Positions 32,955-41,070 of a stretch of 64,000 nt of DNA are shown piece by piece. The position numbers and the translations under genes were made by a program. The notes below the pieces were generated by a model. It was not told where the DNA came from and did not search any database. It was given only the letters and a program-made list of their open reading frames with translations. The first letter of the stretch is position 1. Every line of letters starts with the position of its first letter. Origin of the DNA: Lysobacterales bacterium (lineage in GTDB: Bacteria; Pseudomonadota; Gammaproteobacteria; Xanthomonadales; SZUA-5); contig JALHMG010000011.1 of assembly GCA_022844135.1 (NCBI GenBank), positions 46,839 through 110,838 on the forward strand, written 5' to 3'.

Positions 32955-34545
<1,591 letters not shown>

Positions 34546-37500
34546 ATGACCCGATGGCTTGCTGCTGCCATATTGTTTTGCTGTGGACCAGCACATGGTG
34601 GCGCTCTCATCGTGGCTACGGAACGCCGCCCGGCCCAGAGCGTTCCTCTGGACACTGTGGTCTCGGCGTGGATCGATAGCGAAGGCGAAAGCCACGCAGT
34701 GGAAAGTCCGCTGGACTTGCTTGAAGTCGAATACGGTGCGATGCAATTCGGATCGGTCGAATTGGTGTCTGGCACGACCAAGCACCAGATGGCTTCGGGC
34801 TCCTGGTACTGGCTGCCGATTCCGAGCGAGCTTGCAGCCGATGGGCGCTTGCGGGAAACTGTGTTACTGCCGCCCGAATCGGTATCCGCCGCTTGCGATA
34901 TCGCGAGCGACCAGACGCTGGAGATTTCCGCCGGTTCGCGAGGTTCGCTCTATTGGCGCTGCGCGCTGACGCACTTGCGCGCCGGTCGCCAGGACAAGTC
35001 CGATGCCGCATTTGCGAACGCTGTCGCTTTTGCGCCAGAGCACGCTTTATGGCTGAACATTGCCTATCGCATCGAGGGACGGCGCGCTGGTGCTCCTGTG
35101 CAAGGCTTGCGCACCGCACTCGATGCTCTGGTTCACGACAGCCAGAGCAGCGCCGTCGCGAAGGACGTTGTGCAGCTCGAACGCGCGAGGGCATTGCAGC
35201 GCGAGTTGAAACTTGGCGAAGCTTCGGCACAACTTGCGGACCTGCGCTCGCGGCGCACTGGCGATCACTTGCTCAACATGGTTGCGACGATGGTCCATGC
35301 GCAAACGCTCCGCGACTTGAACCGCGTCGAAGAAGCGCACGCCGCGTTCGTCGATCTGCTCGAAATGGCGAGAAAACTGCCGCCTAGCCTGGAGGTTGCT
35401 GGCGCGCTGATGAGCGCTGGTCTGTGGCAACGCACCCGCGGCGACTACGCCGAGGCCGAGCGAACCATGCTGGATGCGCTCGCCGTTTATCGGCAAACCG
35501 ACCCCTTCGGCCTGCAGACTGCTTCGTTGCTGTTCAACATCAGCCCGCTGTACCTCGACCGGGGTGAGCTGACCAAGGCGGATGAGGCGCTTCGAGAGGC
35601 GCTGGCAATACAACTCAAGGTCAGTTCTACGGGTCGGTACGCGAAGAACACTTACATCGCGATGGCGGCGTTAGCCGTCGAACGCAATGAGTTGGACGAA
35701 GCTCTGCAAAACATTCTCAGGGCCATCGAGCTTCTCAGCGCGGAGCCGGCATCGCCCAACCTGGCCGCTGCGTACTCTCAGCTTGGCATCGTTCATTCAA
35801 AACGTGGATCGTTGTCCGATGCGGTATCAGCTTTTACCGAAAGCGATCGACTGTTCCGTCAGACCACTCCGGGCACGATGATCCATACCTGGACTCTACA
35901 GTTGGGTGCTAGCGCCAGACAATCGCTCGGCCAGATCGAATCGGCGCGCGCGGATCTGGAACGCGTCGTTGCGATGCGCGAAAAGATCGCACCCGACGGG
36001 CTCGACCTGGCCAAAGGTCGGCAAGCGCTCGCAGATTTGGCGTTGGCCAATAACGACGTCGATGTGGCTGCCAAAATGCTCGATGCGGCGGTACCGGTTA
36101 TCGAACGAAATGCGCCACATTCGAGCTACCTGGCGCACGCAATCAATAGCCAAGGTCGTATCGCCAGGCGCCTCGGGCAAACGGATAAGGCTCGCGAATT
36201 GTTCTGCCGTGCGGTCGATATCGTGGAACAGCAAAAAATGCGCATCAGTCCGCTCGCCGAGCGGCGCGCGCGGTACAGCGCGGAACAGCGTGCGCTGTAC
36301 GACGATTGCACACTCGCACGCGCGCAGGATGGCGACCTCAGCAGGGCTTTCGACGTGATCGAGCGTTATCGAGCGCGCGGTTTGATCGAGTTGATGAGCG
36401 ATCGCGCGCTGCTGCTGGACAACGACCTCACTCCCGCATTGAGATCCGAGCGCGACCGGCTGGAACGGGCATTGGCGCGAACCCCCGGCGACGCTCAATT
36501 GCAGTCTGCGCAGGATCAGCTGATTGGCCGCATTCGGGCTCAGGCGCCGCGTTACGCGGCCCTTCGCTATCCCGAGCCTTTGTCCCTTCGCGTCGCGAGT
36601 CGGCAGTTGCCTCGCAAGAGTGCGGCGGTCGTTTACTTGCTGTCGGGCGATCGTTTGCACGCCCTGGTGGTTCGGGGCGACCGCGAGCCATCGTTTGTCG
36701 ATCTTGGACCAGGCCGTGATGCAATTGCTGCGGTCGCGGCATTGCGCTCCTCAACCGACACCGCCTCGCTGCGTCGTACCTTTGCAGTCCTGATGGCGCC
36801 GTTAGAGACGGCGATTGCCGGCGCCGAACGACTGATACTTGCGCCGGACGACGTGCTGCATCAAGTGCCTTTCGCTGCGCTGCAGGATACGCACGGGAGA
36901 TATCTGATCGAGCGCTTCAGCCTGAAACAGGTGCCGTCGTTGTCGCTGCTCGCGGAACTCCAGCGGCGCCGCTCTGCGAACGACGGCATCGTTGCGACCG
37001 CTGATCCGATGGCCGACGGCGGTCAGCGACCCGCCGTTTTGCGCGGCAACCTTGCGCCGCTGCCGAATGCGCGTCGCGAAGTCGATGCGATCGCTCGTAT
37101 CTTCGGTGGTCGCACGGCAGTCATCGTTGGCGAAGCCGCAAACGAATCCGCAGTGATGGCAGCGGCACGCAATGCTCGCGTTGTGCACTTGGCGGTACAC
37201 GGTTTTTTCGATTCCAAGTTTCCCGCGCGATCGGGTCTGGTACTGGCGCCGTCCGCGAACGACGATGGGATCGTCAACGTCGCCGACGTCGCTCAGCGCT
37301 GGCAGCTCGATGCCGATCTCGTTGTTCTCAGCGCCTGCGAGTCGGCCGCAGGCGAGATCAGCGCCAGCGAGGGCGTGATCGGTTTGGTGCGGGCATTTCA
37401 TTACGCCGGCGCGCGCACCGTATTGGGCAGCCTCTGGGCGGTCCCTGATCGAAGTACCGCCGACCTCATGGTGGTGTTCCATCGGCTGCAGCAACGCGGC

Positions 37501-37656
37501 TTCGATGCAGCCGACGCTCTTCGGCACGCACAGTTGGCGATGATCGGGCGCCCGGCTCTCTCCGCGGATACGTTGCGCGGCGTTGGCGCCGTCGCCGCCA
37601 CAAAGAGCTCGCCGAGCATCCAGGCCTGGGCAGCCTTCGTCGTTCATGGCGGATAG
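34546..37656 (+). CDS. Exported TPR-CHAT (caspase-like) protein
   Basis: A 1036-residue precursor with a signal peptide (RWLAAAILFCCGPAHGGA). A short N-terminal beta region is followed by tetratricopeptide repeats from about residue 140 to 640, then a CHAT domain to the end. Both catalytic residues of the caspase-like fold are present: His885 in VVHLAVHGFFDSKF and Cys931 in VVLSACESAAG. Later family motifs are ARTVLGSLWAVPD and the C-terminal WAAFVVHGG. CHAT proteins include separase-like and gasdermin-activating proteases. Here the signal peptide would place it outside the cytoplasm. AAGGA lies eight bases before the start. Downstream lie an unknown protein, then a convergent Ser/Thr kinase and sigma factor, suggesting one signalling system. 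Confidence 0.88.
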   Translation: MTRWLAAAILFCCGPAHGGALIVATERRPAQSVPLDTVVSAWIDSEGESHAVESPLDLLEVEYGAMQFGSVELVSGTTKHQMASGSWYWLPIPSELAADGRLRETVLLPPESVSAACDIASDQTLEISAGSRGSLYWRCALTHLRAGRQDKSDAAFANAVAFAPEHALWLNIAYRIEGRRAGAPVQGLRTALDALVHDSQSSAVAKDVVQLERARALQRELKLGEASAQLADLRSRRTGDHLLNMVATMVHAQTLRDLNRVEEAHAAFVDLLEMARKLPPSLEVAGALMSAGLWQRTRGDYAEAERTMLDALAVYRQTDPFGLQTASLLFNISPLYLDRGELTKADEALREALAIQLKVSSTGRYAKNTYIAMAALAVERNELDEALQNILRAIELLSAEPASPNLAAAYSQLGIVHSKRGSLSDAVSAFTESDRLFRQTTPGTMIHTWTLQLGASARQSLGQIESARADLERVVAMREKIAPDGLDLAKGRQALADLALANNDVDVAAKMLDAAVPVIERNAPHSSYLAHAINSQGRIARRLGQTDKARELFCRAVDIVEQQKMRISPLAERRARYSAEQRALYDDCTLARAQDGDLSRAFDVIERYRARGLIELMSDRALLLDNDLTPALRSERDRLERALARTPGDAQLQSAQDQLIGRIRAQAPRYAALRYPEPLSLRVASRQLPRKSAAVVYLLSGDRLHALVVRGDREPSFVDLGPGRDAIAAVAALRSSTDTASLRRTFAVLMAPLETAIAGAERLILAPDDVLHQVPFAALQDTHGRYLIERFSLKQVPSLSLLAELQRRRSANDGIVATADPMADGGQRPAVLRGNLAPLPNARREVDAIARIFGGRTAVIVGEAANESAVMAAARNARVVHLAVHGFFDSKFPARSGLVLAPSANDDGIVNVADVAQRWQLDADLVVLSACESAAGEISASEGVIGLVRAFHYAGARTVLGSLWAVPDRSTADLMVVFHRLQQRGFDAADALRHAQLAMIGRPALSADTLRGVGAVAATKSSPSIQAWAAFVVHGG

Positions 37657-37908
37657 GCTATCGGTCGTTGCTGATGCGATCTGGCGCCGCGGCCTTTCGA
37701 ATCTGGCTTGCAACCCAACTCCAGCGCCGACTCGGCGTTATCGAGGACGCCACGCGCACCGAATGAAGCGCACGTATCGATCTCGCGCAAGCGAGCGTGC
37801 GCTTCAGCATTCGCCAGCGTTTCAGCAATCGAACAATGGCGATTTCGAGCGACGCATTGCAATTGTCGTTTCGACATGAGAGCGACCGACGCTACAGGAG
37901 TTCGGCAC

Positions 37909-38439
37909 ATGGATGAGCGCCTGACGCGGTTGCGACAATGGCTGACGCCAAACTACCTGCACCGCGTGTTGACGGTTCCGGAGCATGCGCTACTGAAGCC
38001 GGGCTGGCGTCTGTATGTGCTCAAGATCGATGCACTGAGCCGACAACTGACGGACTCAGGCGCGCGAAGTTCGGCGTTCGAGCAGCTGCGTACCCGCCTG
38101 TTTCCGCAGTTGCTGCTGCGCATGGATTTCACCGACATCGCAGACCTGACGCACGATGGTCGCCAGCTCTGGCTCACGGATGGTGCTGCCGTTCGCTGGC
38201 GCAACGCGGCGCCGAATGCCGCATCCAGCCTCGGATTCGCCTTTCAATTCCTGCCGTTCGCGATCGCCATGGATGGCGAATGCCTTTCGGGTGGGTGGAT
38301 CGTCCCGGCTGAAAGCCGCGCCCGCCTCGCAACGCCGTGCATGCGTCTGCTGGTCGGGACGCGGCGATTGGCTATCGAATTTGTGGCCGCCGGGAGCGAC
38401 GATCCAGCGCAGGCAATGGCAGCATGCCGCAACTTGTAA
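37909..38439 (+). CDS. Hypothetical protein (176 aa) between CHAT and kinase genes
   Basis: A soluble 176-residue protein with no signal peptide and no family I recognise. The N-terminus is helical and basic (DERLTRLRQWLTPNYLHRVL). The centre is rich in Leu and Arg (LRTRLFPQLLLRMDFTDIAD), and there is a beta-rich stretch GRQLWLTDGAAVRWRNA. GGAG lies eight bases before the ATG; an upstream in-frame extension to 37708 is not supported. It follows the CHAT gene on the same strand by about 250 bp and converges with the kinase gene, with four bases between stops. Its position suggests a part in the same system. Confidence 0.7.
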   Translation: MDERLTRLRQWLTPNYLHRVLTVPEHALLKPGWRLYVLKIDALSRQLTDSGARSSAFEQLRTRLFPQLLLRMDFTDIADLTHDGRQLWLTDGAAVRWRNAAPNAASSLGFAFQFLPFAIAMDGECLSGGWIVPAESRARLATPCMRLLVGTRRLAIEFVAAGSDDPAQAMAACRNL

Positions 38440-38443
38440 TCCG

Positions 38444-40015
38444 CTACGGGTTGATCAATTCGAAACGCCGCACTTCGAGATTCCGATGGCGAGCCTTCAA
38501 TGCCGCTAACCATTGCGCATCCGGCTCGCTGGTTGCTGGCGCGAGACCACCGACGCCACGCGTGGGCTCGAAGGCATAAAGACCTTCGCCGGGGGCATCC
38601 AGCGCCGCTTGTTGCGCCGATTGGAAGTGCTCGCTGGAGATCGGCTCATCGCTCAGTAGAACGAAGAAGTGCTCGCGACCGCCTCGGCTGGTGATACGCC
38701 AGTCGAGGGCCGAGTCTGGGAGTCGATAGCTACCAGCATCGAGCGGATTCTTGAGGGTCGATGTGGCGAGCGGGAACAGCTTGTATCGTGCGCCGGCGAG
38801 GTCCTCATTGATCACATATACATACCGCCGGTCGGTCAACGTCAGATGCAACGCCAGCGCATCGCCAACCCGAGCGGTAGCGCCTGAGCTGAGGATTTCG
38901 ACGCCCTGATCGCTGCTGGTGCGCAACCACTCAGTTCGATGCGCCTCAGGCGTGGCGACCGGCCACCAGATCGCGGCCGCTAGCACAACGGCCGCCGCTG
39001 TCGCTACCGCCATCAGCGGCGGTACCCGGTGGCGCGGCGCGGCATGCAGCGCCGCAGCGAAGTTTCCGCAACTGCTGTGGCGCTTTTTGGGATCGACGGC
39101 CAGCGCGCGCTCGATCGCATCGATCTGCAGGCGCGGTAAATCCGGGCGCAAGTCCATGAGACGGCGACGCTCACCCTTGCGGTGTTGCGCTTTCAGATCG
39201 ATCACAGTCTCGGCGCTGTACGGATAGCTGCGTGCAGCAAGATAGAACAGCAGCACACCCAGGCTGTATTGATCGGCCGAAGCCGTGACGGCAGTCGATG
39301 TGAAGCGTTCTGGCGCCATGTAGAGCGGCGTGCCGCTGGCGCCCAAAGGATCGTTTGCGTATTGGCTTGAACCAAAATCGGCGACGACCCAACGGCCGTC
39401 GCGGTGGCGCAGGACGTTTGCGGGCTTCAGATCGCCGTGGACGATGTTGCCCTGGTGTAGCGCACAGAGCGCCGCACACAACTCACCACCGATCGTCGTT
39501 ATTTCGCTGGCGCTGAGCTTGCCCTGGCGTCCGAGCCATCGCTCGAGCGATTCGCCGGGTAGCAGTTCGCTGACAAATCCGATCAGCGAATCGGTTTCGA
39601 CCGCGCCATATACTTTGAGCACGTTCGGATGGTCGATCCGCGCCAGCAATTGCCCCTCGCGAAGCAACTCCTGGCGATGCCCTCCCTTGAACACCTTGAG
39701 CGCCACATCGCGATCGAGACGTTCATCGTGAGCCCGATAAACGGTGCCATAGCTTCCCTCGCCGAGTACGGCCGCGATACGCAGATCGCCCACGGTTGAG
39801 CCAACGCCAAGCGGACCGATCCCCTGCGGGGCGTCCGCTGCGACCGCAAAGCTCCCGGCGAGCGCCGCCACCTGGCGCAAGCTGGCGAGCAAGGCCGGAC
39901 TCAAATCTGCAGCCGCTTGCGTCCAATCGATCGGCAGCCCTTCGGCCAGACGCGCCGTCCACTTCAATAACGGGTCGGCGTGCAGCGGGGTGACGTTGCT
40001 CGCGGTTGCCGACAT
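38444..40015 (-). CDS. Transmembrane Ser/Thr kinase with DUF4384-like C-terminal domain
   Basis: A 523-residue Hanks-type kinase. The N-terminal 65 residues are helical. The kinase domain (about 75-335) has the P-loop GEGSYGTVYRA, Lys107 in VALKVFK, catalytic Asp195 in IVHGDLKPANVL, DFGSSQ and YMAPERF, so it looks active. The HRD motif reads HGD, as in several bacterial kinases. A membrane span follows (PPLMAVATAAAVVLAAAIWW). The C-terminal region, with DRRYVYVINEDLAG and YKLFPLATSTLKNPLDAGSY, matches the DUF4384 pattern and would lie outside the membrane as a sensor. It begins four bases after the ECF-like gene, with AAGGA upstream, so the two form an operon. Confidence 0.9.
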   Translation of the reverse strand: MSATASNVTPLHADPLLKWTARLAEGLPIDWTQAAADLSPALLASLRQVAALAGSFAVAADAPQGIGPLGVGSTVGDLRIAAVLGEGSYGTVYRAHDERLDRDVALKVFKGGHRQELLREGQLLARIDHPNVLKVYGAVETDSLIGFVSELLPGESLERWLGRQGKLSASEITTIGGELCAALCALHQGNIVHGDLKPANVLRHRDGRWVVADFGSSQYANDPLGASGTPLYMAPERFTSTAVTASADQYSLGVLLFYLAARSYPYSAETVIDLKAQHRKGERRRLMDLRPDLPRLQIDAIERALAVDPKKRHSSCGNFAAALHAAPRHRVPPLMAVATAAAVVLAAAIWWPVATPEAHRTEWLRTSSDQGVEILSSGATARVGDALALHLTLTDRRYVYVINEDLAGARYKLFPLATSTLKNPLDAGSYRLPDSALDWRITSRGGREHFFVLLSDEPISSEHFQSAQQAALDAPGEGLYAFEPTRGVGGLAPATSEPDAQWLAALKARHRNLEVRRFELINP

Positions 40016-40019
40016 TGGA

Positions 40020-40609
40020 TCAATCCTTGAACTCGCTCATGTTGCGGGCGAGATCGGCAAGCGCACGCGCTACGCGCATGCGCGCCGCGTTGGCGCTTGG
40101 GCTCTCCGTCGCTGCTGCGATCTCATCGTGCGCCATACCAAGCTCAACACGCATGACCACAACCTCGCGCTGGTCGTCGCTCAGCTTGCTCAATGCCGCC
40201 TCGTAGGCCCGCAAGGTTTCCACCGTCATTGTCTGCGCCAAGGGCAAGGGCGCCTCATCGACGATGTGCTCTTCGAGCGCACTGGCTTGCGGACGGCGAC
40301 CAACACGACGCAATTCGTCTTTCAGCAGATTACTCATGATCTGGCGCAAGAATGCGAAAAAAGCTCCGGGTCCTTGCGCTTGAAACGATGGCAAATGCTG
40401 AAACGCACGCAACAAAGTAACTTGCACCAGATCGGAGGTCTCCGACAAATCCCGTGCGCCCGACGGCAGGCGTCCACGCGCCCAGCGGGTGAGAATCGGG
40501 AGGTACCGAGCGAGAAGGCGTACCGAGCGAGAAGGCGATCGCGCGCTGTCGCGTCGCCGGCATGGCTGCGTTCGACCAGGTCCATGGTGGTTTCGAGCGG
40601 GGCATTCAT
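40020..40609 (-). pseudogene. ECF-type sigma factor, frameshifted by a 17-bp duplication
   Basis: From ATG 40609 (GGAAG upstream) the frame reads MNAPLETTMDLVERSHAGDA and continues to RDRLLARY, then breaks at a tandem 17-bp repeat. Removing one copy joins RDRLLARY to LPILTRWARGRLPSGARDL, then DLVQVTLLRAFQHLP (sigma region 2) and LSDDQREVVVMRVELGMAHD (region 4), giving an intact 190-residue sigma factor. As read, the N-terminal frame ends early and region 2 can only be reached by a frameshift or a downstream start. The kinase gene follows after four bases. ECF sigma factors paired with Ser/Thr kinases are often activated by phosphorylation. An error in the assembly or a true OFF state would both explain this. 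Confidence 0.85.
40504..40537. repeat. 17-bp tandem duplication inside the sigma gene
   Basis: TACCGAGCGAGAAGGCG occurs twice in direct tandem, at 40504-40520 and 40521-40537. Because 17 is not a multiple of three, the second copy shifts the frame. Loss of one copy would restore it. This is seen directly. Confidence 0.97.
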
Positions 40610-40818
40610 CGGCTGACTTCCACGATTTTGCGCATGCTAACGCACACAACTTCAGACCACCGGTTTTGGCCGTCGATGGCCCATCGGCATTGGAGCGTCC
40701 GCTGTGCCCTACCAGAGGCGCGCAGACGATGGAACGAGCCTGTGCATCGGCGCTCGGTTCTCGTTGTGAATCCCGCTGGATATGCCACAGTGGTGAAGAA
40801 CCGAGTACAGCCTGGAAC

Positions 40819-41070
40819 CTACTTCTCCGGCAGCGTCACCGACAGCGCCAGCACTTCCTGGCTGCCCTCGCGCTCAAGGTTAACCTGCACAGCGTCCGGG
40901 TCGACGTTGACGTACTTGCGGATGACTTCCAGCAGCTCGCGCTTGAGCAGCGGCAGATAGTCCGGCATCGCCTCAGCGCCGCGCTCTTGGGCGACGATGA
41001 TCAACAGGCGTTCTTTGGCCAGTTTGGCGGTGTTTTTCGGTCGCGCTTTGAAAAGATCGAATAGGCCCAT
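40819..41070 (-). CDS. minE: Cell-division topological factor MinE
   Basis: An 83-residue partner of MinD that clears the division inhibitor from mid-cell. The N-terminal membrane and anti-MinCD segment reads [20 protein letters not shown]. The C-terminal dimerisation region follows ([20 protein letters not shown]). Length is normal (E. coli 88). It lies six bases after minD, with GGGAG upstream. It is the last gene of the minCDE run; the gap after it leads toward the sigma-kinase operon. Confidence 0.95.

What the first reader, a model, noticed from the sequence alone, without database searches (positions are those of the whole stretch)
40020..40609. A 17-bp tandem duplication switches an ECF sigma factor out of frame
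The 17-mer TACCGAGCGAGAAGGCG is present twice at 40504-40537. With one copy removed, the frame runs from a ribosome-site-supported ATG at 40609 through complete sigma regions 2 and 4. With two copies it breaks just before region 2. Such a short, exact tandem repeat could be gained and lost by slippage, giving an ON/OFF switch for the sigma-kinase-CHAT island. A recent inactivation or an assembly error are the alternatives.
Basis: partly seen in the sequence, partly recalled or inferred. Interest (0 to 1): 0.8.

Follow-up and report, generated by a model that had tools for sequence, protein, structure and literature searches.

The report
Tandem duplication breaks sigma factor gene
A stretch of 17 DNA letters occurs twice in a row inside a bacterial gene-regulator (sigma factor) gene and breaks its reading frame; this is most likely a recent, in principle reversible knock-out, and nothing found shows that the cell uses it as an on/off switch.

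Summary
An exact 17-bp tandem duplication lies at 40504-40537, inside an ECF sigma-factor gene on the minus strand that is followed by a Hanks-type kinase gene. The only other genome of the genus held has one copy and an open frame that starts with the same 19 residues. Of 87 matches in 39 of 200 genomes of the order, 86 lie outside the window's gene and all 86 align straight through the site; only the window's does not. One copy is therefore ancestral. Codons on both sides of the duplication were under strong purifying selection, so if the duplication is real it is probably recent.

Best reading: a recent, potentially reversible loss-of-function allele. An evolved ON/OFF switch is not supported: no relative examined has a repeat or break there. 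An assembly error cannot be excluded without reads. One testable detail: the stop of the shifted frame overlaps a sigma-frame ATG (ATGA), so ribosomes might restart and still reach the kinase.

The sigma factor is kinase-paired like ECF43, but its region 2.2 motif ([ED]TxDLVQ) keeps the acidic residues that ECF43 lacks (definition), so it is not filed as ECF43.

The parts
40504..40520 (-). 17-bp repeat copy nearer the sigma body; in the sigma frame it encodes the start of region 2
   Evidence: Pfam region 2 starts at residue 45 of the 209-aa reading
40521..40537 (-). 17-bp repeat copy nearer the start codon; the ATG-40609 frame leaves the sigma frame because of the extra copy
40020..40609 (-). 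ECF sigma-factor gene, frame broken by the duplication
40334..40609 (-). 91-aa reading frame open from the native ATG in the two-copy allele
40334..40337 (-). ATGA: the stop of the shifted frame overlaps a sigma-frame ATG, a possible site of translational restart
   Evidence: letters and frame offset 0; function inferred
40647..40649 (-). TTG, the only ATG/GTG/TTG upstream of the repeat in the sigma frame; the congener has TAG at that place in the alignment
38444..40015 (-). Hanks-type Ser/Thr kinase (523 aa) with a borderline C-terminal DUF4384 match; start 4 bases after the sigma stop
   Evidence: 83% identical match in the congener
37708..38439 (+). uncharacterised ORF, no Pfam hit, convergent with the kinase; also beside the congener's kinase (76% over residues 65-242)
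34366..37656 (+). TPR-CHAT protein (CHAT domain at residues 800-1095)
40819..41070 (-). minE-like ORF (name recalled from its sequence, not scanned); DNA similarity with the congener's min locus ends at 40823, so the sigma-kinase block is placed differently there

Best explanation
A chance 17-bp tandem duplication arose recently in a functional, kinase-associated ECF sigma-factor gene. Because 17 is not a multiple of 3, translation from the native ATG leaves the sigma frame after about 30 native residues, at the start of region 2, and ends at residue 91, so no intact sigma factor is made. The lesion could be undone by precise loss of one copy through replication slippage, but nothing indicates that this reversibility was selected. 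Kinase translation may survive because the shifted frame's stop overlaps a sigma-frame ATG. Shown: the duplication in the assembly, its derived state, the frame break, and past selection on the codons either side. Inferred: loss of function, recency, revertibility and restart. Not shown: that the cells really carry two copies.
For: Exact tandem pair with negligible chance expectation. The congener has one copy and the same first 19 residues in frame. 86 of 86 other matches align from residue 8 or earlier to residue 182 or later; only the window's starts at residue 16; in the family 8 of 9 rows are continuous and the ninth is the window's. Changes against the congener are mainly synonymous on both sides: dN/dS 0.023 over 24 codons upstream (11 synonymous, 2 not) and 0.041 over 161 codons downstream. 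No further stop or frame break downstream. No multi-copy array at the site and no counterpart in the congener, as expected of a one-off event.
Against: No raw reads and no second genome of this species could be examined, so an assembly error is open. Junction microhomology is only 1 base (by eye), so the origin by slippage is not obvious. dS is near saturation (1.4-1.6) and averages the whole divergence, so it cannot date the duplication. A recent origin is equally compatible with a frequently flipping allele.
Confidence: 0.7

Rival explanations
1. Assembly artefact: the genome has one copy, and the second copy comes from joining two contig ends that should have overlapped by 17 bases, or from another local misassembly.
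For: The genome is a 75-contig draft; a gene whose homologues are unbroken at this site is broken here with no other decay.
Against: Two copies span only 34 bases, shorter than ordinary reads and usual assembly k-mers, so one-copy reads would not normally assemble as two copies (general knowledge, not tested). In the 311,737 of 5,340,936 bases of this genome that were scanned for periods 10-120, no other exact non-microsatellite tandem pair of period 13 or more was found outside the 28-39-bp repeat arrays, so there is no sign of a systematic artefact.
Confidence: 0.18
2. Evolved or selected phase-variation switch: slippage between one and two copies turns the sigma factor, and with it the kinase pathway, ON and OFF.
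For: Exact repeat with a frame-shifting unit length in a regulator; frame intact with one copy in the congener; reversible duplications inside genes are described as a cause of capsule phase variation in pneumococci (passages).
Against: No repeat at the site in the congener and no break at the site in 86 of 86 other matches. Only two copies. Two alleles were not observed.
Confidence: 0.06
3. The two-copy allele still makes a working sigma factor, started at TTG 40649 with a different N-terminus.
For: The sigma frame is open from 40649 and keeps Pfam regions 2 and 4; GGTGG lies 7 bases before the TTG (by eye).
Against: The TTG is not conserved: the congener has TAG at that place in the alignment. 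The 24 native N-terminal residues would be replaced by 43 unrelated ones; native residues 7-24 align with residues 9-26 of RpoE, and they were under purifying selection.
Confidence: 0.05

Closest known systems
Spontaneous sequence duplications in Streptococcus pneumoniae capsule genes (Waite et al. 2001, 2003; not read, seen as cited in passages of PMC4022640 and PMC4243769)
   Same: A tandem duplication inside an otherwise intact reading frame inactivates it; loss of one copy can in principle restore it.
   Different: There the duplication is described as reversible and tied to phase variation (PMC4022640 cites a reversion frequency of at most about 1e-5 for insertions of up to nine bases); here one sequence of one genome is available and the target is a sigma factor, not a capsule enzyme.
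icaC tetranucleotide slippage in Staphylococcus aureus (PMC4117637, passages)
   Same: Tandem-repeat copy number sets the reading frame.
   Different: There a short-unit array varies in 9 of 103 genomes and was shown to be reversible and RecA-independent; here a single 17-bp duplication is absent from the congener.
ECF43 sigma factor with cognate Hanks kinase (EcfP/PknT, EcfK/PknS; PMC8999054 and PMC13147305, passages)
   Same: ECF sigma gene directly followed by a Hanks-type kinase gene.
   Different: Region 2.2 here is ETSDLVQV: the charged DxxD positions are kept and the QTTA/STTA motif is absent; a Thr at the second position is invariant in 52 of 52 distinct homologues.

Membership tests
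ECF sigma factors (group 4) | Regions 2 and 4 present | tested here: met
   Pfam region 2 and region 4 in the shifted-frame reading and in the congener's intact protein; NCBIfam sigma70-ECF above its cut-off in both. The best-scoring NCBIfam subfamily, TIGR02984, stays below its cut-off (83 and 94.7 of 183.75 bits), so no subfamily is assigned
ECF43 (kinase-activated) | Adjacent Hanks-type kinase gene | tested here: met
   Kinase starts 4 bases after the sigma stop. Comparing by hand, 21 of the 25 listed kinase matches have a sigma match within about 270 bases upstream
ECF43 (kinase-activated) | Region 2.2 lacks the acidic DxxD motif (QTTA/STTA instead) | tested here: not met
   ETSD in the window; D/E at position 1 in 50 of 52 and D at position 4 in 52 of 52 distinct homologues; definition from passages
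ECF43 (kinase-activated) | Sigma factor phosphorylated by the kinase | not testable with these tools
   needs biochemistry
Slippage-based phase-variable (contingency) locus | Tandem repeat in the reading frame with unit length not a multiple of 3 | tested here: met
   two 17-bp copies
Slippage-based phase-variable (contingency) locus | Repeat retained or variable among relatives | tested here: not met
   single copy in the congener; 86 of 86 other matches align through the site. No other strain of the species was available
Slippage-based phase-variable (contingency) locus | Reversible copy-number change observed in a population | not testable with these tools
   no reads or sibling isolates
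Spontaneous gene-inactivating tandem duplication (pneumococcal capsule type) | Exact duplication of a sequence that is single in relatives, shifting the frame | tested here: met
Spontaneous gene-inactivating tandem duplication (pneumococcal capsule type) | Reversion by loss of one copy | not testable with these tools
   needs culture or reads

The most novel reading that the evidence does not exclude
The 17-bp duplication is one state of a slippage switch that disconnects a sigma factor from its kinase: two-copy cells lose the sigma factor but, through restart at the ATGA overlap, keep making the kinase, so a population holds signalling-competent and signalling-blind cells.
Probability: 0.06. 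Interest if true: 0.6.

Novelty: new member of a known kind. Interest (0 to 1): 0.25.

Why it matters
If the duplication is real, it is a clean natural example of a regulator switched off by a short, potentially reversible duplication, caught before further decay. If it toggled, it would carry duplication-type phase variation from surface structures to a sigma-kinase signalling pathway. As the evidence stands it mainly warns that frame-broken regulators in draft genomes need read support. Separately, the sigma family next to these kinases has a region 2.2 motif ([ED]TxDLVQ, with no acidic residue after the Q in 51 of 52 distinct homologues) that differs from ECF43; its invariant Thr is a specific candidate phosphorylation site to test.

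Tried and rejected
Within-species comparison: the family search returned 9 genomes, 2 of them in the genus, so copy number among strains could not be tested. Hairpin-templated duplication: the 91-base region folds no better than shuffles (z 0.99); rejected. Sigma-70 promoter scan upstream: none found in the window or the congener, so no promoter is claimed. Recurrent breakage in homologues: a frame-split homologue, G023:C36, looks by eye like a 1-base shift, not a duplication. Two of the 86 other matches were flagged with one TGA; re-read, neither has a stop within the aligned residues (1-186 and 7-186), so the flag is probably the ordinary terminator, and I no longer count them as broken. A first regex for the region 2.2 motif hit wrong places in many loci; its counts are discarded and replaced. 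A first alignment with the congener used the wrong strand; replaced. Literature: one search gave 4 papers, one, four, 205 (20 listed), one; (CHAT domain + ECF sigma factor + kinase) gave 0; (phase variable + sigma factor + tandem repeat + slipped-strand) gave 2, PMC1574311 seen as a listing only and PMC12817950 by passages (it describes tandem-repeat copy number as phase-variable and reference errors at repeats in M. tuberculosis). No claim of absence from print is made beyond these searches.

Full report
Observation. The 17-mer is present twice, head to tail, at 40504-40537, with one further matching base at 40503. By base composition a period-17 exact pair is expected about 9e-6 times in a window of this size. 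In 311,737 of 5,340,936 bases of the same genome (the window plus the stretches), scanned for exact pairs of period 10-120, the others are two 12-bp pairs, one 10-bp pair, two 8-bp microsatellite tracts that register at period 16, and 28-39-bp repeat arrays. In 245,620 bases of other genomes (some stretches overlap, because the same contigs were fetched twice) there is one comparable 17-bp pair (L045, from G007). Such pairs are rare but not unique.

What is broken. On the minus strand the ATG at 40609 opens a frame that reads MNAPLETTMDLVERSHAGDATARDRLLARY, then leaves the sigma frame and ends after 91 residues at 40334. The sigma frame itself is open from 40649 to 40020 and carries Pfam region 2 and region 4. 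The only ATG, GTG or TTG upstream of the repeat in that frame is the TTG at 40649, where the congener's aligned letters are TAG.

Which state is ancestral. With that protein as query, 39 of 200 genomes of the order (drawn evenly from a larger group, at most 16 candidates scored per genome) gave 87 matches at E 1e-30 or better. All 86 outside the window's gene start at residue 8 or earlier and reach residue 182 or later in one alignment; the window's starts at residue 16. Two of the 86 were flagged with a TGA, which on re-reading lies outside the aligned coding part. One homologue below that threshold, G023:C36, is split elsewhere by what looks like one base. Within the family (9 genomes, E 1e-20) 8 of 9 rows are continuous and the ninth is the window's. 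One copy is therefore ancestral.

Selection and age. Against the congener, the 24 codons before the duplication show 11 synonymous and 2 nonsynonymous changes (dN/dS 0.023), the 161 codons after it 77.3 and 22.7 (0.041); the kinase shows 0.078 over 520 codons. The gene was thus under strong constraint in the frame that the duplication breaks. dS is near saturation, so the duplication cannot be dated; the absence of further decay only says that it need not be old.

Consequences. From the native ATG the two-copy allele gives only the first 30 native residues before the frame changes. A TTG-40649 product would instead lack native residues 1-24, of which 7-24 align with residues 9-26 of RpoE. The stop of the shifted frame at 40336-40334 overlaps an ATG at 40337-40335 that is in the sigma frame (ATGA). 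A restart there would give only the C-terminal part of the sigma factor but would carry ribosomes towards the kinase start, 4 bases after the sigma stop. This is an inference with a simple test.

Context. The kinase (Pkinase, plus a DUF4384 match at 27.2 bits against a cut-off of 27) belongs to a recurring pair: of 25 kinase matches at E 1e-40 listed among 61 relatives, 21 have a sigma match within about 270 bases upstream (searches compared by hand; several matches are partial). The four exceptions are G001:C4, G007:C809 (its match begins 263 bases from the contig end), G012:C1:144548 and G023:C3:149610. The congener is the notable one: its sigma gene is on C20, its kinase on C4 with what looks like the last few codons of a sigma gene in front of it (by eye), its min genes on C35, and its best CHAT match is 31% identical. 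A CHAT match near a sigma or kinase match recurs in G011 (C1:1786926 with sigma at 1792376) and G007 (C809:3341 with a kinase at 263). The block is therefore modular, and its fate as one switched 'island' should not be assumed.

Relation to known systems. Kinase-paired ECF sigma factors are known; in ECF43 the acidic DxxD of region 2.2 is replaced by a motif whose Thr is phosphorylated (passages of PMC8999054 and PMC13147305; the latter also notes that EcfK keeps one acidic residue there). Here 52 distinct homologues (72 of 73 loci given matched over the motif; the set includes the window and the congener) have D at position 4 in 52, D/E at position 1 in 50, Thr at position 2 in 52, Ser at position 3 in 5, and an acidic residue at position 8 in 1. 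The family thus fails the ECF43 test, although it may be controlled by its kinase in a similar way (inference). Reversible inactivation by duplication within a gene is described for the pneumococcal capsule (passages of PMC4022640 and PMC4243769; the original papers were not read), and frame switching by tandem repeats for icaC (passages of PMC4117637).

Verdict. Reads decide between that and an assembly error; sibling strains or a reversion assay decide whether it deserves to be called a switch.

Noticed in passing
1-323, with a like array just upstream on the same contig (L053:6692-6828): A 39-bp tandem array (CATGGGTCCGCGTACCAAGAGCAAAGCGAAGCTGCGGAC); related 28- and 35-bp arrays on contig C2 of the same genome (L061:6237-6322, L063:8370-8663) share the sequence around CCATGGGTCCGC, so this looks like a dispersed repeat family.
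   Followed up: no
L042:10604-10660 and L043:15077-15649: In the congener the sigma gene and its kinase lie on different contigs, and a short stretch resembling the sigma 3' end precedes the kinase, suggesting relocation or loss of the sigma gene; an integrase-like ORF (name recalled, not scanned) lies beside the sigma gene at L043:13592-14890.
   Followed up: partly
37708-38439: Uncharacterised ORF with no Pfam match, convergent with the kinase, found beside the kinase in the congener (76%) and more weakly in G007 (35%).
   Followed up: partly
L050, G023:C36:42020-42618: A homologous sigma gene in another family of the order is split into two frames by what looks like a 1-base shift, not a duplication.
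   Followed up: partly
L045:18509-18544: An unrelated exact 17-bp tandem pair in G007.
   Followed up: no
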